From Clostridia bacterium (GTDB lineage Bacteria > Bacillota > Clostridia > Lachnospirales > Anaerotignaceae): 64,000 bases of DNA. The stretch is from NCBI GenBank assembly GCA_910575055.1, contig CAJTDC010000001.1:62001-126000 (forward strand), read 5' to 3'. The notes under the pieces are model-generated. The model saw only the letters and a list, made by a program, of their open reading frames with translations. It did no database searches and was not told the DNA's origin. Position numbers and translations under genes: made by a program. Below, one piece after another: positions 16,404 through 27,800 of this stretch. Each line of letters starts with the position of its first letter. Position 1 is the first letter of the stretch.

Positions 16404-17078
16404 TTATTTTAACAAATCAGGTCGTTTTTGTTTTGTCCTTAATATAGACTGTTCTTTACGCCACTTTTTAATATTGCTATGATGTCCTGAAAGAAGCACA
16501 TCGGGTACTGCTCTACCCATAAACACTGAGGGTCTTGTATATTGAGGATACTCTAAAAGTCCATCAGAAAAACTTTCTTCTTGAAAAGAAGCCTCTTTTC
16601 CTAAAACACCAGGCACTAATCTCGCTACAGCATCAATAACTGCAATAGCTGCAATTTCTCCCCCTGTTAATACAAAATCGCCTATTGAAATCTCCTCTAC
16701 TTCTAATTGCTCTAATACTCTTTCATCTACTCCTTCATAATGGCCACAAAGAAACACTATATTTTCTTCTCTTGCTAATTGTTGTGCTAATTGTTGTGTA
16801 AATGTTTTTCCTTGAGGAGATAAATAAATAACACGCCCTCTTTTTTGTTCTGGTATACTTTGATAAGCATCATAAATTGGTTGTGCTTGCATTACCATAC
16901 CCGCACCTCCGCCATATGGATAGTCATCAACGTGTTTTTGCTTATTTTTAGAAAATGCTCTAATATCTATTGCTTCAATACAAATATGATTTTCTTTTTG
17001 TGCCCTTGCTAATATACTATGAGAAAATGCTTGCATAATCATTTCAGGAAATAATGTCAAAACAGTATATTGTTTCAT
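16404..17078 (-). CDS. trmD: tRNA (guanine-37-N1)-methyltransferase
   Basis: 224-aa SPOUT methyltransferase that makes m1G37 in tRNAs and prevents frameshifting. Visible motifs: [11 protein letters not shown] at the start, [13 protein letters not shown], the knot [15 protein letters not shown] and [16 protein letters not shown], and the C-terminal [11 protein letters not shown]. It overlaps rimM by one nucleotide. In most Firmicutes rplS follows trmD; here a DUF402 gene and radC follow instead, and rplS is not in the window. Confidence 0.96.
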
Positions 17079-17584
17079 TATCTCAATCCTTCCAACAATT
17101 CTACAATCATTTTCTTATTTATAATGTCTACAGATAATATACACTGTTTTATTGCAGGAATGAGTAAGTCTTTTTGTCCCTCTTTTCTAACAGCATATAC
17201 GTCATTTGCTCCTGTTTCGTAAATATCAGCCAATATACCTAATTCTTCTCCTTCTTGTGTCATTACAGTTAAACCATATAAATCACGCATATAATATTCA
17301 TTTTCTTCCAATGGCAATGCTTCTTGTTCTGGTATCCAAATTGTTGCCCCTTTATAACATTCTGCTTCATTAATGTCTTTTAATTCTTTTACTGTTACTA
17401 ACACAAATTTTTTATGATATGCAATTTTTTCTATATGAAAGGTTTCTTTTTTTCCTCTATTTTCTACAATAAATTGTTTTAATCGTTCAAAACGAGATGG
17501 GTCTTCTGTTGTAGGAAACACACGCAATGTGCCTTTTAAGCCATGTGTACCTGCAATTTTTCCTATTTCAAAATAACGTTCCAT
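17078..17584 (-). CDS. rimM: Ribosome maturation factor RimM
   Basis: 168-aa 30S maturation factor that acts on the 16S 3' domain with S19. The N-terminal RimM barrel has the signature [27 protein letters not shown]; the C-terminal PRC-barrel contains [20 protein letters not shown] and the conserved [17 protein letters not shown] start at MERYFEIG (ATG 17584) with AGAGGTGCATT upstream; the in-frame extension to 17653 is leader sequence. A hairpin with a competing pairing lies in that leader (17618-17704). It is coupled to trmD. Confidence 0.95.
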
Positions 17585-17617
17585 AATGCACCTCTTTTTT
17601 TGTAAAAATGTAAAATA

Positions 17618-17704
17618 GCACAGGGAAATTCCCTGTGCCAAAACTATTTTCAACTTAGTATGTCAAAACATTCAACATACTTAACACAAAGCAGTTCCCT
17701 ATGC
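17618..17704 (-). promoter_or_regulatory. Candidate attenuator-like leader of rimM-trmD
   Basis: A 9-bp hairpin (GCACAGGGA/TCCCTGTGC, 17618-17638) sits about 34 nt before the rimM ATG. On the minus strand a near copy of its 5' arm, GCATAGGGAA (17704-17695), occurs 57 nt earlier and could pair with the same TTCCCTGTGC arm, with one G-U pair. A second small stem (AGTATGT/ACATACT) lies between. The hairpin's T-rich tail is interrupted, so it may be a weak terminator for khpA or a switch. No known riboswitch or r-protein leader was recognised. Confidence 0.35.
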
Positions 17705-17786
17705 TTATTTTATCATACTTATTGTACAATGTGAACTGCCGATTTGTGAACTATACTCTTCTTATAGAAGTGTTTTTTTAGTCAAA

Positions 17787-18014
17787 TTACATAATTTCAA
17801 TTACAACTCTTTTATCTTCATGAATTGCAGATGCTTTTACAACAGTACGAATTGCTTTGGCAATTCTTCCCTGTTTTCCAATAACTTTTCCCATATCTTC
17901 AGGTGCTACATGAAGTTCTAACACCAATGAATGTTCTCCTTGTATCTGTTTTACTTCCACTTTTTCAGGATAATCCACAAGATTTTTTGCAATTACTTCC
18001 AATAAGTCTTTCAT
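17787..18014 (-). CDS. khpA: KH-domain RNA-binding protein KhpA
   Basis: 75-aa protein that is essentially one KH domain, with the GxxG loop in GKVIGKQGRIAKAIRTVVKA. KhpA pairs with KhpB in Firmicutes and affects division and sRNA biology. I start at MKDLLEVIAKNLVDYPEKV (ATG 18014) with AGGGGGGC upstream; the longer in-frame start at 18050 lies only 10 nt from the rpsP stop region and is not family-like. It follows rpsP by 25 nt, the usual order. Confidence 0.93.
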   Translation of the reverse strand: MKDLLEVIAKNLVDYPEKVEVKQIQGEHSLVLELHVAPEDMGKVIGKQGRIAKAIRTVVKASAIHEDKRVVIEIM

Positions 18015-18039
18015 ATGAAAGCCCCCCTGCTTACTTGCC

Positions 18040-18288
18040 TTACTCGCCAATTACGCCAGCTTTTTTTAACAGAGCCTTTGCTGTATCAGAAGGCTGTGCA
18101 CCTGTAGATAACCATTTTTTTGCTTGTTCAGCATCTACTTTTAACACGTTTGGTTCTTTTGTAGGGTCAAAATAACCAATCTCTGCGATAGACTTACCAT
18201 TTCTTGATGTTCTGGAATCTGCAACAACAATTCTATAAAATGGAGCCTTTTTTGCACCTAATCTTTTTAATCTAATTCTAACTGCCAT
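18040..18288 (-). CDS. rpsP: 30S ribosomal protein S16
   Basis: 82-aa S16. Opens [31 protein letters not shown], then IEEIGYF-like GYFDPTKEP and the C-terminal [20 protein letters not shown]: the family pattern over its whole length. GGGAGGTGAAACAA precedes the ATG at 18288. It lies 32 nt after ffh in the ylxM-ffh-rpsP-khpA operon. Confidence 0.97.
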
Positions 18289-18320
18289 TTGTTTCACCTC
18301 CCATAATTTTTCTGGCAAAT

Positions 18321-19664
18321 TTATCTAAAAAAAGGAAATTTCATTTTCCCTCTTTTGCCCTTTTGCATATCACTCATTTGTTTCATCAGTTTTTTCAATT
18401 CTTCAAACTGTTTTACTAGACGATTAACATCTGCAATACTTCTGCCGCAACCATTTGCAATTCTTTTTTTTCTAGGACCATTCAATATAGAAGGATTTGC
18501 TCTTTCTTCTTTTGTCATAGACTGTATAATTGCCTCTGTACGACTCATTTCTTTTGCTGGGTCTACATTATTTAAAGCGTCCATATTTAATTGGTTCATA
18601 CCTGGTATCATTCCAATTAAATCCTTAATAGGCCCCATTTTTTTGACCTGCTGCATTTGTTCCAGAAAATCATCTAATGTAAAATCATTTTCACGCATTT
18701 TCTTTTGCAATTCCATTGCTTGCTTTTCATCAAAGCTTTGCTGTGCTTTCTCTATCAGAGAAAGTACATCTCCCATACCTAATATACGAGAAGCCATTCT
18801 ATCAGGGTGAAATGGCTCTAAATCCTCCATTTTTTCACCCATACCAATATATTTAATAGGTTTACTTGTTACACTTCTAACTGAAAGTGCAGCACCACCT
18901 CTGGCATCACCATCTAATTTTGTTAATATAATACCATCAACACCTAGCTGACCATCAAAACTTTCTGCAACTGTTACAGCATCTTGTCCTGTCATAGCAT
19001 CTACTACAAGAAGTATTTCTTGAGGGTGTACTGCTGTTTTGATATTTTTCAGTTCTTCCATTAATTCCTCATTGATATGCAAACGTCCAGCTGTGTCAAT
19101 CAATATTACATCATATTTCTGTTCTGCTGCATATTCTACAGCTTTTTTAGAAATTTCTACAGGACTTATTTTATCTCCCATTTCAAAAACAGGTATATTA
19201 TATGTCTTTCCTACTACCTGTAATTGTTTAATTGCAGCAGGACGATATACGTCACAAGCTACTAAAAGAGGATTTTTTCCTTGTTTTCTCAAAAGCCCTG
19301 CTAATTTTCCGCTGCTTGTTGTTTTACCAGCACCTTGCAAACCTACCATCATATATATTGTAGGTGGTCTATTGGCAAATGTTAATTTACTTTGCGTTGT
19401 GCCCATCAAATCAATTAACTCTTCATTTACAATTTTAATAACCTGCTGTCCTGGATTTAATCCTTCTAACACTTCTGTGCCAACAGCACGCTCTGTTACT
19501 TTTTTAATAAATTGTTTTACAATTTTAAAATTGACATCTGCTTCCAACAATGCAATTTTTACTTCTCTCATAGCTGTTTTTACATCATTTTCTGTCAATT
19601 TTCCTTTGCTTCTGAGTTGTTTAAATACTTCTTGTAATTTACTAGAAAGACTTTCAAATGCCAT
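18321..19664 (-). CDS. ffh: Signal recognition particle protein Ffh
   Basis: 447-aa SRP54 GTPase that binds 4.5S/SRP RNA and signal peptides and docks to FtsY. N domain (residues 1-90), G domain with [42 protein letters not shown], and a C-terminal M domain that begins near residue 300 and is rich in Met, ending in [14 protein letters not shown]. Length is typical. AAAGGAGAAAGCAT precedes the start. ylxM lies 16 nt upstream. Confidence 0.98.
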
Positions 19665-19680
19665 ATGCTTTCTCCTTTAC

Positions 19681-20034
19681 TCAGCCTATAATTTCAGCGG
19701 CAATTTTTTGAATTGTTTCAATATTATTTTTTGTACTATAAGAAAGAGTTTCTTCTTTTTCTATTTCTTCAATAATACTTTTAATTTGTTGTACAGCCAT
19801 TTTTTGTTTTAAAAATCTTTCTACTAACTGCAACTTTTTTTCATAATTTTGCAGTATTTTTTCCGCTCTTTTTAATTGGTCACGAACGGCTTGACGACTA
19901 ATAGAAAGTTCTTCTCCAATTTCACTCAATGATAAATCATTTTGATAATACATTTCATATACTAATTTTTGTTTTTCTGTTAGTAATTCTCCATAAAAAT
20001 CATAAAGCAGTGTTAGCTGTAAAATCTCTTTCAT
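19681..20034 (-). CDS. ylxM: YlxM family HTH protein (UPF0122)
   Basis: 117-aa sigma-70 region 4-like helix-turn-helix protein: LLYDFYGELLTEKQKLVYEMYYQNDLSLSEIGEELSISRQAVRDQLKRAEKIL (family core; helix-turn-helix at LSLSEIGEELSISRQAVRDQ). The rest is a charged coiled-coil. YlxM is encoded next to ffh across Firmicutes and has been linked to SRP assembly in streptococci. First gene of the ylxM-ffh-rpsP-khpA operon, with a strong promoter at 20086-20114. Confidence 0.93.
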   Translation of the reverse strand: MKEILQLTLLYDFYGELLTEKQKLVYEMYYQNDLSLSEIGEELSISRQAVRDQLKRAEKILQNYEKKLQLVERFLKQKMAVQQIKSIIEEIEKEETLSYSTKNNIETIQKIAAEIIG

Positions 20035-20085
20035 AATTGCTTGCCTCCATATCAGGCTGTAAAGTATTTTACCTTCACCTCAAGT

Positions 20086-20114
20086 AGGGTATCATATTTT
20101 AAATATCCTGTCAA
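20086..20114 (-). promoter_or_regulatory. Promoter of the ylxM-ffh-rpsP-khpA operon
   Basis: On the minus strand a perfect TTGACA, a 17-nt spacer and TACCCT. Near-identical 11-12 nt repeats, AAGTATTTTAC at 20062 and AAGTATTTTTAC at 20113 (plus strand), flank it, which may be chance in AT-rich DNA. Confidence 0.6.
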
Positions 20115-20219
20115 GTATTTTTACTTTACATTAATAAAAATTATTTTGATTTTTATTAATGATAATGATATGTAATAAATTTATTTGATATGTTATACTA
20201 ATTATAAGGAGGAATATTT

Positions 20220-20720
20220 ATGTTTAAAATAGATGCAAGTGATATGTCTTGGTTAGATGGTAAAATTGATAATTGCGAAGATTTATGTTTGCACGGACAC
20301 GCTGTTGCTTTTATTGGTTCTAAAAAATTGGAATATGATGCTACAATAAGTGCAACTGCTCTATATTTACTAAAATCTCTTACAGAAAATCATATTATAA
20401 ACGAAGATAATCAAATGTTGCCTTGTTGTGGCTTTTTTCTGATTGCTGATGATAAATCAGAAAACGTGATAATAGTTGGCTGCAGAAATGGTATTGATTG
20501 GTCTATTATTCATAGTGGAGAAAATATAAAACTAATTTTAGAAGATGGCTCTGAAACAATAGTATCATTTGAAGAATACAAAAAAGAAGTATTTCAATTT
20601 GCAGACAAAGTGGAAGCATTCTATAAAGCAAGCCCTCCAAGAAAGTTACCAAAAGATGAATTTGATAGAAATGGATACATTACATTTTGGAAAGAATGGC
20701 ACAGAAGAAGAACAGAATAA
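20220..20720 (+). CDS. Hypothetical cytoplasmic protein in the SRP-operon island
   Basis: 166 aa, not recognised. No signal peptide or membrane segment. The N-terminal 90 residues look like an alpha/beta domain (CLHGHAVAFIGSKKLEYDATISATALYLL; CCGFFLIADDKSENVIIVGC), the C-terminal part is helical and ends with the aromatic, basic segment FWKEWHRRRTE. The general look, a small acidic cytoplasmic protein beside unknown genes, recalls immunity-type proteins, but no motif proves this. TAAGGAGG precedes the ATG. It is divergent from ylxM and convergent with the 421-aa protein. Confidence 0.6.
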   Translation: MFKIDASDMSWLDGKIDNCEDLCLHGHAVAFIGSKKLEYDATISATALYLLKSLTENHIINEDNQMLPCCGFFLIADDKSENVIIVGCRNGIDWSIIHSGENIKLILEDGSETIVSFEEYKKEVFQFADKVEAFYKASPPRKLPKDEFDRNGYITFWKEWHRRRTE

Positions 20721-20735
20721 CATTCATAAAATAAT

Positions 20736-20765
20736 AAAACCTCCTATAAATTATAGAAGGTTTTT
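20736..20765. terminator. Bidirectional terminator in the SRP island
   Basis: Stem AAAACCT.CTAT/ATAG.AGGTTTT with one mismatch, followed by T runs on both strands. It serves the converging 166-aa and 421-aa genes. Confidence 0.7.
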
Positions 20766-20790
20766 ATTAATAAGTATTAAACTCTTTGTA

Positions 20791-22056
20791 TTAACTTCCC
20801 CATACTTCTTGAGTTGTACGAACAATCAATTCTTCTAAAGGTGTGCCCATAACAGTATCCCCTAATATATTTAATTCTCCACTATTAAACATAGCAGTTA
20901 ATTTTGCTTTTGCTTCTGCCTTTTCCTGTAGTTGTTGAGAGGAAAGCATAGGCATATCATAATGTTGTGACAACTTCATTAGACCAGACAAATTTGCTGC
21001 ACTCAATGTGCCTCCAGCCAAATCAAACAATCCAGAGGACTTTGGAGTACCTGTTAAACCATACAAAAGCATTTCATGTCTTAATTGTCCCTCTAATTGT
21101 AACTGCATAAAATATTTATGACGCAAAGAGCGTTCTGTCCAAAAATCTAATGCCATATCAGTACCGCTGCTACTTTCAGAATAAGAAAACCTACCTTGAC
21201 TATGTGATTGTGCATTAACAATTTCTCCATTTTCTCCTATTGCAACGCTTCTTGAAGTTCTTGCAGTAATACCTGGCATTATTGCCTCATTTCTTGCAGC
21301 ATCAAATTCAAACCATTTATTAATTCTATCATATATTTCTTTGGCATACTCTGGTTCTTTTTCCATACGTTGCTGTACTTTAGGGTGAATTACTACAGCA
21401 GTTGTACCTACAGGTACAGAACTTAAAGCCTTTATTTCTTTTGGAGCAGTAAATACACCACCTATAGAGCCATAAAAAGGATTTTCTCCTGTAGGTTTCC
21501 AATTTTCCAATGCTTCTGTATCAATATCATCTTGATAAAGTAAATAATGTGGATAATCATTTCTTGTTCTCCAATAACTACTGCTTGCATCAAAAACATG
21601 ATATTTTAAATTAGGATACTTTGCTTTTAACATACCTTCTAATGTAGTTTCTTGTACTGAGGAAGCATTGTCTATTGATGAAACATTTTCTACTGGTAAA
21701 ACATTCTGTACAGATGAATTCATTTGTGATGGTGAAACAAATTTTATAGAATATTTTGGTATTGTTGACATATTTATTGTTTTTGTTGATGTACTCGTTT
21801 TTACAGGAGTACTTGTCTTTGTTAATGTACTTGTTTGTGTTTTTGACTGCGTTTGATTGCTTGTTTTTGTTACCATATCTTTAAAAGCACTATTTTGTGT
21901 AGTATTCTTTTCAGACTTTTTATTCGTTTTTGGTATATTAACATTCACAAACTGTACATTACTTGATTTTTGTGTATTTGCTTTTACTATTTTTACTATA
22001 TTTGTTTCTGGCTTACTAGCATTCGTAAATTTTACATTTCCATTGACTGACTGCAT
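20791..22056 (-). CDS. Large hypothetical protein, paralogue of the 237-aa neighbour
   Basis: 421 aa, no known family assigned with confidence (some resemblance to DUF6033-type proteins). Residues 1-130 are low-complexity, Ser/Thr/Asn/Lys-rich with repeated VKFTNAS / VQFVNVN / IKFVSPS-like and KTSTPVKTSTSTKT units. The folded part has IHPKVQQRMEKEPEYAKEIYDRI and then RSVAIGENGEIVNAQSHSQG, which align with NPKLIEKMKNDPEQEKETMELI and RHSYIDENGKYCSIS in the next gene. A helical C-terminus with LEGQLRHEMLLYG follows. No signal peptide, so it is cytoplasmic or exported by a non-Sec route. Start at ATG 22056 after GTGGAGGTAAAAAAT. Confidence 0.6.
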   Translation of the reverse strand: MQSVNGNVKFTNASKPETNIVKIVKANTQKSSNVQFVNVNIPKTNKKSEKNTTQNSAFKDMVTKTSNQTQSKTQTSTLTKTSTPVKTSTSTKTINMSTIPKYSIKFVSPSQMNSSVQNVLPVENVSSIDNASSVQETTLEGMLKAKYPNLKYHVFDASSSYWRTRNDYPHYLLYQDDIDTEALENWKPTGENPFYGSIGGVFTAPKEIKALSSVPVGTTAVVIHPKVQQRMEKEPEYAKEIYDRINKWFEFDAARNEAIMPGITARTSRSVAIGENGEIVNAQSHSQGRFSYSESSSGTDMALDFWTERSLRHKYFMQLQLEGQLRHEMLLYGLTGTPKSSGLFDLAGGTLSAANLSGLMKLSQHYDMPMLSSQQLQEKAEAKAKLTAMFNSGELNILGDTVMGTPLEELIVRTTQEVWGS

Positions 22057-22106
22057 ATTTTTTACCTCCACATCTATTTTTAATTATTATTTCGAAATAA
22101 AATATT

Positions 22107-22820
22107 TTATATTTTCAAATTTAACATTGTATTTGCTGTAAAACTATTTTGTTGTTTGTTTTGTTCTGCTGCTTTCATAATGCTTTTCATATCTTTATCA
22201 TTCATATAAATAATACCATTTTCAGCATTAGCAATTTTTTCATTGATAAATTCTTCTATATTATCTGTTTTTTGATTTCCTTTTTCAGTTTTCTTTTTTT
22301 CTAATATCTTTTGTAAATCTTCTTTCTTTTTTGTTATTTTCTCTTTTGATTTCTCAATTAGTTGTTCAGTATTCTTTTTTGTTTTTTCTCGAAGTTTAGC
22401 ATTTAATTTATCATCTTTTTTGGTATAAGAAATAGAACAATATTTTCCATTTTCATCTATATAACTATGACGGTATACAACAGTTCTTCCAGTAGCTTTA
22501 TTAATACCATCTACCAATTTTGTCATACTTTCGACACCTTTTATTAATTCCATAGTTTCCTTTTCCTGCTCTGGGTCATTCTTCATTTTTTCTATCAATT
22601 TTGGATTTACTGTCAGCGTTTTACCTGTTTTTGCTGTTGAAAATCCATTTCCAACTTTAAATTCTACACTTGGCACAAGTTTTGCTAATTTAGTTATATA
22701 GTCTGATGTGCTGTCTTGTTTGCTATTTGCTGTTGTTTGTGCTGTTTCCTCTTTTGCTGTTACATTTTTATACCTACTTTCATATACATTATTATAGTTG
22801 CTCATTACTGTCATTGCCAT
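22107..22820 (-). CDS. Hypothetical protein, paralogue of the 421-aa neighbour
   Basis: 237 aa. N-terminal MSNYNNVYESRYKNV and a variable linker are followed by the shared domain: TLTVNPKLIEKMKNDPEQEKETMELIKGVESM, then TGRTVVYRHSYIDENGKYCSISYTKK. The C-terminal half is a Lys/Glu-rich coiled coil (residues about 140-200) and the tail reads FTANTMLNLKI. This layout resembles DUF6033-type proteins of Lachnospiraceae; I hold that loosely. AAAGGGGGCAACAAT precedes the ATG. It is in one orientation with the genes on either side, 50 nt before the 421-aa gene, so probably one operon. Confidence 0.6.
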   Translation of the reverse strand: MAMTVMSNYNNVYESRYKNVTAKEETAQTTANSKQDSTSDYITKLAKLVPSVEFKVGNGFSTAKTGKTLTVNPKLIEKMKNDPEQEKETMELIKGVESMTKLVDGINKATGRTVVYRHSYIDENGKYCSISYTKKDDKLNAKLREKTKKNTEQLIEKSKEKITKKKEDLQKILEKKKTEKGNQKTDNIEEFINEKIANAENGIIYMNDKDMKSIMKAAEQNKQQNSFTANTMLNLKI

Positions 22821-22980
22821 ATTGTTGCCCCCTTTATATTCTATTACCTTTTATTTCATTATAACATATAATTAATACATGGCCTTATTTTAGCTAACAT
22901 TTGCATTTAATTAGTCATTTGCACATACTGTTGGCTGCATACCATTCAAAACTTTTATTTCATTTTGCTTTGCATAATGT

Positions 22981-23265
22981 TCATCTACTACTTTTTTCCC
23001 TTTCCCCTAATGCTTTCAGAGGTTCTAAATGCGGAAATGTTGTTTCACTATCATTTACTGTTGCAGAAATATCAATTTCAGACATTGTTTGTCTTTCCAA
23101 AACATCTTTGTGTAATTTATTAAAATCTTTACTACTTTCTAATTCTTCTGTAAAACATTTTAATTTTTTGCTATTTTCTTGTTTTGACTTTTGTAATGCC
23201 TCTCTCATTTTTGCAGCTTGTTCTGGGTCATTCATTGTAAGCATTTGCGTATCTATAATCCTCAT
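22981..23265 (-). CDS. Small hypothetical protein, probably frameshifted at its C-terminus
   Basis: 94 aa as read: MRIIDTQMLTMNDPEQAAKMREALQKSKQEN and a helical, charged remainder with FPHLEPLKALGE. The NDPEQ..KM segment echoes the shared motif of the two downstream genes. The frame ends at SSR-stop right after a G/A homopolymer run (GGGGAAAGGGAAAAAAG). In the +1 frame a further 26 codons continue without a stop (KVVDEHYAKQNEIKVLNG, then MQPTVCAND) to a TAA at 22911. I think the intact gene spans 22911-23265. AAAGGGGATTTTTT precedes the ATG. Function unknown. Confidence 0.5.
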   Translation of the reverse strand: MRIIDTQMLTMNDPEQAAKMREALQKSKQENSKKLKCFTEELESSKDFNKLHKDVLERQTMSEIDISATVNDSETTFPHLEPLKALGEREKSSR

Positions 23266-23360
23266 AAAAAATCCCCTTTCCTATTGTTTAACATAAATCT
23301 CTGCCCTTACAATAAATATCGTCAAAATGTGGTAATACTTTACACTTTCTGTATAAAAAT

Positions 23361-23400
23361 AAGAAACCACTTTATACATAAATATACTTTATGGTTTCTT
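23361..23400 (-). terminator. Terminator after ftsY
   Basis: 9-bp stem AAGAAACCA/TGGTTTCTT with a 22-nt loop that can fold further; on the minus strand it is followed by ATTTTTATAC. It closes the aroB-ftsY run. Confidence 0.75.
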
Positions 23401-23410
23401 ATATTTCTAT

Positions 23411-24784
23411 TTATTCTCCAAATAATGCTTTTGCAAATTCTTTTGCATCAAATTTTTGTAAATCTTTGATGCCTTCTCCTACACCAATATATCTTACTGG
23501 CAATTTCAATTCAGATTTAATTGCAATCACAATACCACCTTTTGCAGTACCGTCCAATTTTGTCAATATAATTCCTGTAATATCAGCTACTTCTTGAAAC
23601 AATTTCGCTTGTTGCATAGCATTTTGTCCTGTAGTGGCATCTAATACTAAATAAACCTCTTTATGTGCTTGAGGATATTCTCTTTCAATTACTTTTGCAA
23701 TTTTTTTCAGTTCTTCCATAAGATTTTTTTTGTTATGAAGCCTACCAGCAGTATCGCATATCAGCAAATCCATATTTCTATTTTTTGCTGCATTTACTGC
23801 ATCAAATACTACTGCTGCTGGGTCAGAGTTTTCTTGGTGTTTAATAACATCAATGCCTGCTCTTTGCCCCCAAACTTCTAATTGGTCAATGGCTGCTGCT
23901 CTAAAAGTATCTGCTGCCCCTAAAAGCACATTTTTTCCTTGTTCTTTAAAATTATGAGATAATTTTCCTATTGTAGTTGTTTTTCCTACACCATTTACAC
24001 CTATCACAAGCATAACTGTTGGAGAGGGTAAATTTTCCTGTTGTTGTGTATCTTCTTCTAATATTGCCGTAATTTCTTCTATCAACATTCCTCTAATTGC
24101 TTGTGGGTCAGTGATATGTTCTTTTTTAACACGTTTACGCAGATTTTCTATAATATTCATTGTTGTTTGCACGCCTATATCTGCCATAATAAGTACTTCT
24201 TCTAGTTCTTCGAATAAATCTTCGTCTATTTTTGTAAATGCTCCTAGAACATTATCTACGCCACCTAATATATTTTTTCTTGTTTTATCCAAACCAGCAA
24301 ACAATTTTGCAAAAAATCCTTTTTTCTTTTCTTTTGTTTGTTCTGTGTTTTGTTCTTGTTCTGTTTGCTGTATTTGTTGTGAAACTTTTTCTGCTTCCTG
24401 TTCTACTTTTTCTATTTGTTCTAATTCCTCTGTTTTTGGTGTAGACATTTCTACTGCTTTTGTTAATGCCTCTTGTATTGTTTTTGTTTCTTCTTCTGTT
24501 AATGGAGGCACTTGTTGTAAATCGGCTGTTTCTTGATAAAGTTTTCCTCCTGTAGCAGTATGCAGTTCTATTTCTTCTCCATCAATGGCTTTGTGTACTG
24601 CTTGATTGATAGCAGTAGTATTGTCTTCTCCTACTAAATCTAATTTTATAGTACTTTCCTCTTTTTCAGCAGAAGGCAATTCTATCTCAATATCATTTAA
24701 TTTTATACTGTCACTATCCTGTTTTATTTCTATTTCTTTTGTTTCTTCTTTCTTTTTTCCTTTTAAAAAATCAAATAAACCCAT
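23411..24784 (-). CDS. ftsY: SRP receptor FtsY
   Basis: 457-aa membrane-targeted SRP GTPase. MGLFDFLKGKKKEETKE begins a long acidic, Glu-rich A region (residues 1-150), then the N domain and G domain with GVNGVGKTTTIGKLSH, DTFRAAAIDQLEVW, CDTAGRLHNKKNLMEEL, TKLDGTAKGG and the closing GVGEGIKDLQKFDAKEFAKALFG. Start at ATG 24784 with TGAGGTGA upstream; a GTG twelve bases earlier is in frame. It lies 23 nt after smc. Confidence 0.97.
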   Translation of the reverse strand: MGLFDFLKGKKKEETKEIEIKQDSDSIKLNDIEIELPSAEKEESTIKLDLVGEDNTTAINQAVHKAIDGEEIELHTATGGKLYQETADLQQVPPLTEEETKTIQEALTKAVEMSTPKTEELEQIEKVEQEAEKVSQQIQQTEQEQNTEQTKEKKKGFFAKLFAGLDKTRKNILGGVDNVLGAFTKIDEDLFEELEEVLIMADIGVQTTMNIIENLRKRVKKEHITDPQAIRGMLIEEITAILEEDTQQQENLPSPTVMLVIGVNGVGKTTTIGKLSHNFKEQGKNVLLGAADTFRAAAIDQLEVWGQRAGIDVIKHQENSDPAAVVFDAVNAAKNRNMDLLICDTAGRLHNKKNLMEELKKIAKVIEREYPQAHKEVYLVLDATTGQNAMQQAKLFQEVADITGIILTKLDGTAKGGIVIAIKSELKLPVRYIGVGEGIKDLQKFDAKEFAKALFGE

Positions 24785-24807
24785 TTTTTTATTCACCTCA
24801 TTTTTAT

Positions 24808-27800
24808 TTATACATATGCTTTGTCCTCAAAATTAACAGAAATCATTTTTGATACTCCCTTTTCCTGCATTGTTACACCATACATTACATCTGCTGCTTC
24901 CATAGTACCCTTTCTATGTGTAATCACTATAAATTGTGTATCTTTTGAAAATTTCTTTAAATAATCGGCATATCTTTTTACATTTGCATCATCTAAAGCA
25001 GCCTCAATTTCATCTAATATACAAAAAGGAGAAGGTTTCATTTTTAATATGGAAAATAATATTGCAATCGCTGTTAGTGCTCTTTCTCCTCCAGAAAGCA
25101 ACAACATATTTTGAAGGCTTTTTCCGGGAGGTTGTGCAATAATTTCTATAGAGGACTCTAGCACTTTTGTTTCATCACTTAATTTTAAATAAGCTTTTCC
25201 TCCTCCAAACATTTCACGAAACACTTCTCCAAAATTTTTAGAAATAACATCAAACTGCTCTCTAAATCTATTTTCCATCATTTGGGATAAATCCGAAATA
25301 AGCAAATGTAATTTTTGTTCTGCCTCTAATATATCTGTTTTTTGTGTTATTAAAAAATTATAACGCTGTTTTACTTCTTTATAATTTTCAATAGCTTCTA
25401 CATTAACAGCACCTAGTTCTTTTATTTGATTTTTCCACTGTTTTGTATCAGATTTTAACTTTTGATAAGAAGCTGTTTGTACTTGTGTATCATATTGTTT
25501 TTTTACTATTTGATACGTCATTTCATATTCTTCCCATATTTCATTAAAAAGCCTTTGTTTTTCTTCTGTTATTTTTTCTTGTTTTGTTTCTATACGAAAT
25601 ATCTCATTACTCAATAAAGAAATATTTTCTATCATTTGTTTTTGCTCTTGTTCTAACACGGCAATTTGTTGTTTTTTTTGTTCTCTATTTTCTGTTAATT
25701 CTGTAAAAACAGACTGCTTTTTTTGTTCTTGTTGTTTATAAAAAATGTTTTTTTGTTCTAATTCTTTTTGCTCTAATTCTTTTTGTTTGCTCAATTTCTG
25801 AAAAGAAATCATTTCTTGTTGTATTTGTTCTTGTTCTTGTTTTAATGTAACATTTTGTTGTTTCAAACGTTGTATACTTTCTTTTACTGCCTTTTTATTT
25901 TGTTCTTCTGCTGAAATATTTACTTTTAATTCTGTTATAGTATTTAAAATAGTTTCTCTTTGTTGTTTTTCTTCTGTCATATTATATTGAAATGCAGAAA
26001 GTTTTTCATTAATATAGTTCATTTTTTGTTCTGTCTGTTCTACTATTTTTTTAAATTCAGTCACTTCTTTTTCAGCAAATTGGCATTGTTCTACTATCTG
26101 TTTTTGTTCTAAATCATATAATTTTTGTTTTTGTTGTCTTTCTAACAATAAATTTTCTGTATTTTGTTTATCTTCTTGGTTTTTTTGTAAAGATAACTGT
26201 ATTTCTTGTTTTTTCATTTGTTTTTGCATAAAAAGCTCATTATTTTGTTCTAGTTGTTGTTCTAACATATGAAATTGCTTTTGACAATTTTGTAAAAGTA
26301 TTTGTTCTTTTTCTATATCTTCTGACAAATCATTAATTTCTCTGCTTCTACTAAAAACACTTGTTGTTTTTTTTGCCATACTTCCACCTGTCATAGCGCC
26401 GCCTATATTAAATAAATCTCCTTCTAATGTTACCATACGATATTGATTATGATATTTTTTAGACAGCAAAATGGCTATATCAATATTTTCTACTATTACT
26501 GTTCTACCTAAAAGAGACTGTATTACATTATCATAAACAGTATCATATTCTATTAAATCGCTAGCTACACCTAATACACCGTTTTCTGACAGTATTTCTT
26601 CTTTTATTAATTTTCTTCCCTTTATAGAAGTAACAGGCAAAAATGTAGCACGTCCCAAATGGTACTGCTTTAAATACTGTATTGCCTCTTTAGCATCATA
26701 TTCTGTTTTTGTAATGATATTTTGAATATTTCCCCCTAATGCAATTTCAACAGCAGTTTCATATTTTTGAGCAACACAAATTAATTCTCCCACTACACCA
26801 CAAATTCCCTGCCATTTTTCATTTCCCGAATGTTTCAAATGCAATATACTTTTTACACTTTTATAATATCCTTCATGCTCTTTTTCCATTTCAGAAAGAA
26901 CAGAAAAACGAGAGCGTTTTTGTGTTAATTGTTGTTCTCTTTTTTTCTGTTCTTCAGAAATATTTTCTTTTTCAGCATATAATTTTTTTACATTTTGTTG
27001 CAACTGTAAAAGTGTTTGTTCTATTTCTTTTTGCTGTTTTTCAAAATCTCGTTTTTGTTTTGAAAGCACCTCATTATGTATCTGATGTGTATGAATTTGG
27101 TCTTTTAAATATTCTTTTTCTGAAGAAAGCTGTTTTTTTCTTTGCTCAAACTGTTCCAGTAAAGACTGTCTTTGACTCATATCACCTTTTGCTTCTGTAC
27201 TAATACGTATTTGTTCTACCATTTCACTTTTATAATCTTCTACATTTTTTTCATTTTCAGAAAGATTACTATTTAATTCATCAAAAATTTTTTCTTGCTG
27301 TTGTAATTTTTCTTTTGCACTTTTTGTTGTTACATCAATTGCTGTTATTTTTGTTAAAAGTAATTGCTCTTCTTTTTGATTTTGCTCTTGTTGTTTTTGA
27401 TGAGAACTGTTTTCTTTTTCTAATCGTTGTATATTTTGTAAAAAATGTTGTATTTGTTCTTTTGCTAAACGAACATCACTTTCTGTTTTTTCCTGCTGAG
27501 AGCGAAAAAAAATTATTTCTTGTTGTATTTTCTGTATTTCATTTTTTAATTGTTCTGACTGTTGTTGTAGATTTTGTTTTTGTTCTGTTTTCTGTTCATT
27601 TTGTTTTAATAAATTTTGTTTATTTTCCAGTGCAATATCTTTGTTATTTTGCTGCTTGACATATTCCTTTTCTATATTGTCTATATCAGTACAAAACATA
27701 GTTAAAGTTGCATATTTTATTTTTTCTCTTAAATCTAAATATATTTTAGCTTTATTGGATTGCTTCTCTAAACTATCCATTTGTCCTTCTAGTTCTGCAA

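What the first reader, a model, noticed from the sequence alone, without database searches (positions are those of the whole stretch)
20220..23265. Accessory island wedged between ftsY and ylxM-ffh
Seen: smc-ftsY ends with its own terminator at 23361-23400, ylxM-ffh starts with its own promoter at 20086-20114, and the 3 kb between hold four genes of unknown function with bidirectional terminator. Known: ftsY and ylxM-ffh are adjacent in most Clostridia. Inference: a recent insertion or a lineage-specific module, unlike the backbone around it.
Basis: partly seen in the sequence, partly recalled or inferred. Interest (0 to 1): 0.5.

Follow-up and report, generated by a model that had tools for sequence, protein, structure and literature searches.

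The report
Flagellar-sigma-driven operon of export-type proteins
A small gene cluster inserted between two housekeeping genes in a gut Clostridium seems to be switched on by a flagellum-type promoter and encodes relatives of a barely studied protein family that is almost always found in bacteria with flagella, so these proteins may be cargo exported through the flagellum.

Summary
In detail: four ORFs (A+, B-, C-, D-) lie between ftsY and ylxM-ffh. A-B-C lies beside ylxM in 2 of the 4 other genus genomes searched; the other two carry a MatE transporter gene there; D was seen only here. B and C are related to each other and to DUF6033 (below Pfam's cut-off). The D-C-B strand starts at a sigma-28-type promoter (23342-23316, TAAA-N15-GACGATAT), conserved upstream of C in sister genome G001. 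Classical DUF6033 genes are enriched for such promoters (18 of 26 against 39 of 389 neighbouring genes). DUF6033-positive genomes carry flhA, the flagellar export gate gene, in 67 of 68 cases against 120 of 226 others; genomes with B relatives in 48 of 50. Elsewhere B usually lies beside a LytTR regulator and GHKL kinase (47 of 59 assessable loci; 0 of 33 and 0 of 26 control regions). Many B relatives have a disordered leader with an F-x-x-x-hydrophobic element near residue 33, like flagellar rod/hook export signals. Best reading: flagellar-regulon proteins, probably exported by the flagellar type III apparatus, here uncoupled from their usual regulator. Export is inferred. Defence libraries gave nothing convincing. 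A is a separate, scattered protein.

The parts
23316..23342 (-). sigma-28 (SigD)-type promoter TAAA-N15-GACGATAT in front of D-C-B
   Evidence: Only match of TAAAN{14,16}GMCGATAT in the window, 0.08 expected, 8 of 100 shuffles had one (pattern written after seeing the site); 3 matches in the whole genome, the reversed control pattern 26; same site upstream of C in sister genome G001. Own-genome flgM, flagellin, fliD and cheA have comparable sites
22981..23265 (-). gene D, 94 aa, first gene after the promoter; unknown
   Evidence: ORF; not found in the G001 region or the other fetched loci; weak profile match, 4.3 bits
22107..22820 (-). gene C, 237 aa, DUF6033-related; predicted core residues about 36-179 = 22284-22715
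   Evidence: Pfam PF19498 20.9 bits against cut-off 25; model pLDDT 74; nearest array relative in alignment A3 is L249, 35%, which lies directly behind a regulator/GHKL kinase pair
20791..22056 (-). gene B, 421 aa, DUF6033-related with conserved HVFDASSSYWRTRNDYPHYLLY block
   Evidence: 68 related loci; shares a core with C
21871..21885 (-). B residues 58-62 FKDMV, F-x-x-x-hydrophobic element in the disordered leader
   Evidence: in 30 of 64 aligned rows the phenylalanine of the element is at residue 33
21187..21657 (-). confident folded core of B, residues 134-290
   Evidence: AlphaFold2 pLDDT mostly about 90 in this stretch; residues 1-132 nearly all below 50
20736..20764 (.). terminator-like stem between convergent A and B
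   Evidence: listed on the - strand; T-rich on both sides in the sequence
20220..20720 (+). gene A, 166 aa, scattered small protein, in other genomes also the C-terminal domain of larger proteins
   Evidence: 12 of 295 order genomes, own included; one fusion partner is DUF3885, PF13021 E 6.5e-25; 27 plasmid records
23361..23400 (.). inverted repeat ending the ftsY operon; a similar one in G001
   Evidence: seen in the sequence

Best explanation
D-C-B is a flagellar class-3 (sigma-28) operon. B and C belong to a DUF6033-related superfamily of proteins that travel with the flagellar type III export apparatus. Proposed mechanism: when the hook is complete, FlgM leaves and sigma-28 transcribes D-C-B together with flagellin. 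The unfolded N-terminal leader (B: FKDMV, the F-x-x-x-hydrophobic gate-recognition type) docks at the export gate and the proteins leave through the flagellar channel, to act outside the cell. In most loci found, the same kind of protein is instead encoded beside a LytTR regulator and GHKL kinase; in this genus the B-C pair stands at the ftsY-ylxM site under a flagellar-type promoter. A is a separate convergent gene. SHOWN: gene order, promoter-like site and its conservation in G001, family relation, flhA co-occurrence, array association, leader sharing. INFERRED: transcription by sigma-28, control by the LytTR pair, export, extracellular action.
For: Promoter; flagellar genes of the same genome give the yardstick. 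Classical DUF6033 genes: sigma-28 score 10 or more of 12 in 18 of 26 against 39 of 389 neighbouring genes, p 1.5e-11; 11 or more in 8 of 26 against 4 of 389, p 3.2e-8. Published consensus TAAA-N15-CCGATAT, and TAAA-N16-17-MCGATAa in Butyrivibrio (PMC3720852, passages). flhA: 67 of 68 DUF6033-positive against 120 of 226 negative genomes, p 1e-14; by genus 39 of 39 against 59 of 103, p 2.5e-8 (recounted in 111); DUF3879, an array neighbour, 16 of 16; genomes with B relatives 48 of 50. Contrast: of 12 genomes with gene A, 3 are not in the FlhA list (the two samples differ). Leader: F at residue 33 in 30 of 64 rows; F-x-x-x-hydrophobic in residues 25-60 in 46 of 59 against mean 19.6, largest 29, in shuffles; first 38 residues 45-76% identical in 10 chosen paralogue pairs whose bodies are 19-36% identical. 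Rod/hook signals lie in residues 30-50 (PMC6123715 section 13), about 26 or more residues after a short N-terminal signal (PMC8983047, passages).
Against: No export or expression data. Window C has no F-x-x-x-hydrophobic element before its folded part, and for the C/DUF6033 alignment the count (13 of 29) does not exceed the largest shuffle (13). Array regulator genes do not look sigma-28 driven (0 of 47 score 11 or more, 4 of 47 score 10 or more; measured from the open frame, not from a mapped start). The own-genome DUF3879 gene has no such promoter; of the ten DUF3879 loci looked at (own included) two score 11. The GMCGATAT pattern was written after seeing the site, and its reversed control is commoner in the genome (26 against 3); the flagellar yardstick sites score only 10 of 12, a score also met by chance inside genes. 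The flhA link is not corrected for a tree: 45 of the 68 positive genomes are one family, and the 48 of 50 has no matched control.
Confidence: 0.5

Rival explanations
1. D-C-B is sigma-28 driven but the proteins stay in the cell, for example as motility, chemotaxis or export-chaperone accessories.
For: Same promoter and flhA evidence; long charged helices in C; C lacks the gate-recognition element.
Against: B-type leaders with an F near residue 33 and leaders shared between different bodies have no obvious use inside the cell.
Confidence: 0.27
2. B, C and the arrays are outputs of a LytTR quorum-sensing-like system with another export route or none; the flagellar link is lineage coincidence and the promoter match is chance.
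For: Regulator pair next to B in 47 of 59 assessable loci against 0 of 33 and 0 of 26 control regions; 21-bp direct repeat with GTCCAGT-type halves before the regulator in 33 of 47 (counted by me).
Against: Classical DUF6033 genes carry sigma-28 sites far above neighbours; the genus-level flhA test; site conserved in G001.
Confidence: 0.13
3. A toxin/immunity or anti-phage island, with A as immunity protein.
For: A sits beside B in all three genomes that have it here; A is a small scattered protein.
Against: No PADLOC, Pfam or NCBIfam toxin or defence match of weight; A is convergent, not co-transcribed, and among the B loci it was found only in the genus.
Confidence: 0.06
4. A neutral accessory insert without a common function.
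For: The site is variable in the family; D was seen in one genome only; B is interrupted by a stop in G002.
Against: B stays 76% and C 71% identical with open frames between the window and G001; promoter conserved.
Confidence: 0.04

Closest known systems
DUF6033 (PF19498) and DUF3879 (PF12995)
   Same: C matches DUF6033 weakly (20.9 bits); B and C fall into one iterated profile with DUF6033 proteins; DUF3879 proteins lie in some of the same arrays.
   Different: C is below the curated cut-off of 25 bits and B gave no DUF6033 match; B has an extra conserved block; Pfam calls both families unknown in function, and the library searched held no paper with either name.
MakA, flagellum-secreted Vibrio cholerae protein (PMC6123715: outline with abstract, and section 13)
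   Same: Non-flagellar protein leaving by the flagellum, with an F37-dependent N-terminal motif; a section title links it to quorum sensing.
   Different: No sequence or fold relation tested or implied; Gram-negative; here export is only inferred.
Flagellar rod/hook substrates FlgD, FliK, FliE (PMC8983047 passages; PMC10936197 abstract)
   Same: N-terminal F-x-x-x-hydrophobic element; own-genome FlgD, FliK and FliE (Pfam) read FLKLI, FYGFM and FADVF in their N-terminal part.
   Different: B and C do not lie among flagellar genes here, and nothing shows them to be structural parts.
AgrC/AgrA-type LytTR two-component systems
   Same: Most assessable B relatives stand beside a LytTR regulator and GHKL kinase.
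   Different: The window's locus has neither. No AgrB/AgrD-like gene stood out among the conserved neighbours printed, but ORFs under 60 aa were not looked at and no specific search was made.

Membership tests
DUF6033 (PF19498) | score over the curated cut-off (25 bits) | tested here: not met
   C 20.9 bits, B no match. Filed only as DUF6033-related
DUF6033-related superfamily (this report) | shared core by profile and by predicted order of elements | tested here: met
   C-seeded profile, iterated with relatives (166 sequences, drift possible), finds B with 131 bits in one domain; both models have strand, helix, long helix, two strands, long helix
sigma-28 (SigD) regulon | TAAA-N15/16-(G)CCGATAT-type promoter upstream | tested here: met
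   23342-23316, 11 of 12 positions, conserved in G001
sigma-28 (SigD) regulon | loss of transcription without sigma-28 | not testable with these tools
   needs RNA data
flagellar type III substrates | host has the export apparatus | tested here: met
   FlhA in G000 (C1:503921-505930), with flagellar genes around it
flagellar type III substrates | F-x-x-x-hydrophobic gate-recognition element in an unstructured N-terminus | tested here: inconclusive
   B: FKDMV at 58-62 in a disordered leader; C: none before the folded part
flagellar type III substrates | FlhA-dependent secretion | not testable with these tools
   needs culture work
LytTR/GHKL-controlled array | regulator and kinase adjacent | tested here: not met
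   none found in the G001 locus L086; window neighbours are ftsY and ylxM
LytTR/GHKL-controlled array | LytTR-type direct repeat upstream | tested here: not met
   generic LytTR consensus (recalled) upstream of D, C and B no better than shuffles; the same consensus also failed on array loci where a different repeat was then found
anti-phage defence systems (PADLOC) | match to a known component | tested here: not met
   best E 0.012 (IetA, B residues 18-122, the low-complexity leader)

The most novel reading that the evidence does not exclude
Flagellated gut Clostridia carry a large, unrecognised set of flagellum-exported proteins (DUF6033-related, DUF3879 and others) with a common leader and changing bodies, produced either with the flagellum (sigma-28) or on a LytTR/GHKL cell-density-type signal: a Gram-positive counterpart of flagellar effector secretion, used in community or host interaction in the gut, mouse gut above all.
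Probability: 0.35. Interest if true: 0.85.

Novelty: new variant of a known kind. Interest (0 to 1): 0.6.

Why it matters
Two Pfam families of unknown function would gain one testable role. If right, motile commensal Clostridia would have a protein secretion route to neighbours or host that I found no paper on, and a simple mouse-gut strain such as ASF356 would allow a direct test.

Tried and rejected
Defence/toxin reading: Pfam, NCBIfam, PADLOC and PHROGs scans of the four proteins gave only weak hits apart from DUF6033 for C. Mobile element: no tRNA in the window, no B relative confirmed in viral contigs, none in plasmids or phages by tblastn, ordinary G+C. Rfam: nothing in 17000-26000 at gathering scores.

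Folds: Foldseek against PDB gave no match with E of 1 or less for B (best 2.0) or C (best 1.1); VIA-align second looks gave C at best Z 5.5 over 45 residues of one helix and B at best Z 2.5. PDB sequence search: nothing for the B profile, eight matches with E 0.28-0.72 for the C profile. None of this proves a new fold.

Generic LytTR consensus upstream of D, C, B, of the contig C9 array and of array regulators: not above shuffles as a rule; the 21-bp repeat was noticed in that output and then looked for, so it was found after the fact, and single loci are often matched by one or more of 20 shuffles. Sigma-28 sites in front of array regulator genes: 0 of 47 score 11 or more. Reversed control pattern for the promoter: 26 in the genome against 3. 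D as a DUF6033 remnant: 4.3 bits only, not claimed. Literature: DUF6033, DUF4885 and DUF3879 gave no paper (the one hit was for the unrelated term DUF4886); searches for LytTR/Lachnospiraceae, SigD/Lachnospiraceae and commensal flagellar export were seen as listings with starts of abstracts and showed nothing on this family.

Full report
OBSERVATION.

SYNTENY. I fetched 33 ffh regions from related genomes, 4 of the genus and 29 others, and searched them with the four island proteins and ffh, ylxM, ftsY and smc. G001 holds ylxM-A-B-C-ftsY; G002 holds ylxM-A-B-C and then its contig ends. D was seen only in the window. G003 and G004 have a MatE-family transporter in that gap. Outside the genus 16 of 29 regions show both ylxM and ftsY: 10 have a gap of 340 bp or less, 6 a gap of 652-4172 bp; other genes were seen in the five of these six that I opened. 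B matches in 5 of 60 genomes, C in 3 of 60, A in 12 of 295, own genome counted each time. So this is a lineage-specific module at a variable site, with ordinary G+C.

FAMILY. Pfam sees only a weak DUF6033 match in C (20.9 bits, cut-off 25). B and C match each other (E 0.001-0.002). A C-seeded profile, iterated over fetched loci, takes in B, DUF6033 proteins and the array paralogues (166 sequences, so drift is possible) and then scores B at 131 bits. Independent models of B (pLDDT 68, core about 90) and C (pLDDT 74) show the same order of elements: strand, helix, long helix, two strands, long helix. Fold searches are told under Tried and rejected.

ARRAYS. A scan of species genomes gave 68 loci with B relatives, in records named Oscillospiraceae, Lachnospiraceae, Peptococcaceae and others; several names are, from memory, mouse-gut strains or catalogues (ASF356, Flintibacter muris, MGBC, iMGMC); I did not test host range. 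In 47 of the 59 loci with enough flank a regulator and a kinase lie next to B on the same strand; Pfam confirms LytTR plus receiver domain and GHKL domain in the examples scanned. The same profiles, which were built from B's neighbours, found such a pair in 0 of 33 regions around ffh and 0 of 26 classical DUF6033 loci. Before the regulator, 33 of 47 loci have as their best direct repeat one with GTCCAGT-type halves and a 21-bp period, often at 79 and 58 bases before the regulator's stop-to-stop frame (counted by me; start codons were not mapped). That is the geometry of LytTR operators (recalled). Between kinase and B lie up to two DUF6033-related paralogues; some arrays also hold DUF3879 proteins. 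In 10 chosen pairs from one array the first 38 residues are 45-76% identical while the bodies are 19-36% identical. The own genome has one such array on contig C9 (three DUF6033-related proteins behind a kinase and regulator). The window's B-C pair has no such pair beside it, and the generic LytTR consensus was not found in front of it.

FLAGELLAR LINK 1, PROMOTER. Aligning the region upstream of C between the window and G001 showed a conserved TAAA-N15-GACGATAT. On a fixed 12-position scale for TAAA-N14..16-GCCGATAW it scores 11 in both. A pattern written around it occurs once in the 64-kb window (0.08 expected) and three times in the genome, while its reversed control occurs 26 times: one other match lies inside a 657-aa ORF on C9, the third 30 bp before a small ORF on C10. 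Flagellar genes of the same genome have comparable sites, each 10 of 12: flgM TTAT-N15-GCCGATAT, flagellin TTAA-N15-ACCGATAT, fliD TTAA-N16-GTCGATAA, cheA TTAT-N15-GCCGATAT (identities by Pfam); sites of that score also occur inside genes. The published consensus agrees (PMC3720852, passages seen). Upstream of 26 classical DUF6033 genes a score of 10 or more occurs in 18 against 39 of 389 neighbouring genes (p 1.5e-11), and 11 or more in 8 against 4 (p 3.2e-8). Array regulators do not have it (0 of 47 at 11 or more).

FLAGELLAR LINK 2, CO-OCCURRENCE. In one draw of 294 order genomes DUF6033 is in 68 and FlhA in 187. 67 of the 68 have FlhA (the exception, G188, is 89% complete), against 120 of 226 others (p 1e-14); by genus 39 of 39 against 59 of 103 (p 2.5e-8) (recount of the handles). 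DUF3879: 16 of 16. Of 50 genomes with a B relative, 48 have FlhA. Gene A shows no such tie: 3 of its 12 genomes are not in the FlhA list (the sample was another draw). Limits: 45 of the 68 are one family, no tree correction was made, and there is no matched control for the 48 of 50.

FLAGELLAR LINK 3, LEADER. Residues 1-132 of B and 1-35 of C are predicted disordered. In 53 of 64 aligned B rows an F-x-x-x-type element of a set form was found in the first 75 residues, with F at residue 33 in 30 (often SFLDMAAQA or SFMDMAAQA); window B has AFKDMV with F58. F-x-x-x-hydrophobic in residues 25-60: 46 of 59 against a mean of 19.6 in shuffles; for the C/DUF6033 set only 13 of 29, equal to the largest shuffle. 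Flagellar rod and hook substrates have this motif in residues 30-50 (PMC6123715 section 13), about 26 or more residues after a short hydrophobic N-terminal signal (PMC8983047 passages); FlgD, FliK and FliE of this genome read FLKLI, FYGFM and FADVF. A third, C-terminal signal is reported for early substrates (PMC10936197 abstract); tails in alignment A3 are also alike (FDIKA, IDFKG, LNLKI), which I note without claiming identity.

MECHANISM. The simplest reading that joins the three links: D-C-B is transcribed by sigma-28 after hook completion and its products are exported through the flagellar channel. What they do outside is unknown; changing bodies behind a common leader, and cell-density-type regulators in most loci, would fit roles towards neighbours or host. 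MakA of Vibrio shows that flagellar export of a non-flagellar protein exists (PMC6123715). I hold the flagellar-regulon part at about 0.8 and export at about 0.5.

GENE A. A is not part of the sigma-28 operon. Relatives are scattered, stand alone or form the C-terminal part of larger proteins, in one case scanned behind DUF3885, and occur on 27 plasmid records, 23 of them Leptospira, at under 60% identity. Conserved cysteines and histidines (DLCLHG, LPCCG) suggest a metal site (inference).

VERDICT. Lineage-specific module confirmed; defence reading not supported; a flagellum-linked family emerges that has no paper in the library under its Pfam names.

Noticed in passing
L052 2236-3579; L053 9143-10483: In two other species of the genus a MatE-family transporter (Pfam) occupies the same ftsY-ylxM gap, so the site takes different cargo.
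   Followed up: partly
L070 7588-11963 (own genome, contig C9): Array of three DUF6033-related proteins behind a GHKL kinase and a LytTR-type regulator in the window's own genome.
   Followed up: partly
before regulator genes in 33 of 47 loci among L088-L153: Direct repeat with GTCCAGT-type halves and a 21-bp period: candidate LytTR operator of the arrays.
   Followed up: partly
L241 9779-14754; L239 6459-12239; L249 9465-14082: Arrays hold further small proteins without a Pfam family, several starting with an I-x-N-Y-x-x-Y-like stretch, besides DUF3879.
   Followed up: partly
L269 11306-11941: DUF3879 gene in the own genome, away from any array in the stretch fetched and without a sigma-28-type promoter.
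   Followed up: partly
L217 10107, L223 8354, L237 8799 and 6 more: A second unknown protein (about 370 aa) lies in 9 of 41 DUF6033-region loci, in 7 of them directly beside the DUF6033 gene.
   Followed up: no
L160, L162, L163, L164: Gene A's domain is fused behind another domain in four genomes; in L163 that partner is DUF3885.
   Followed up: partly
L087 1263-2753: In G002 the B gene is split by a stop codon in its low-complexity leader.
   Followed up: no
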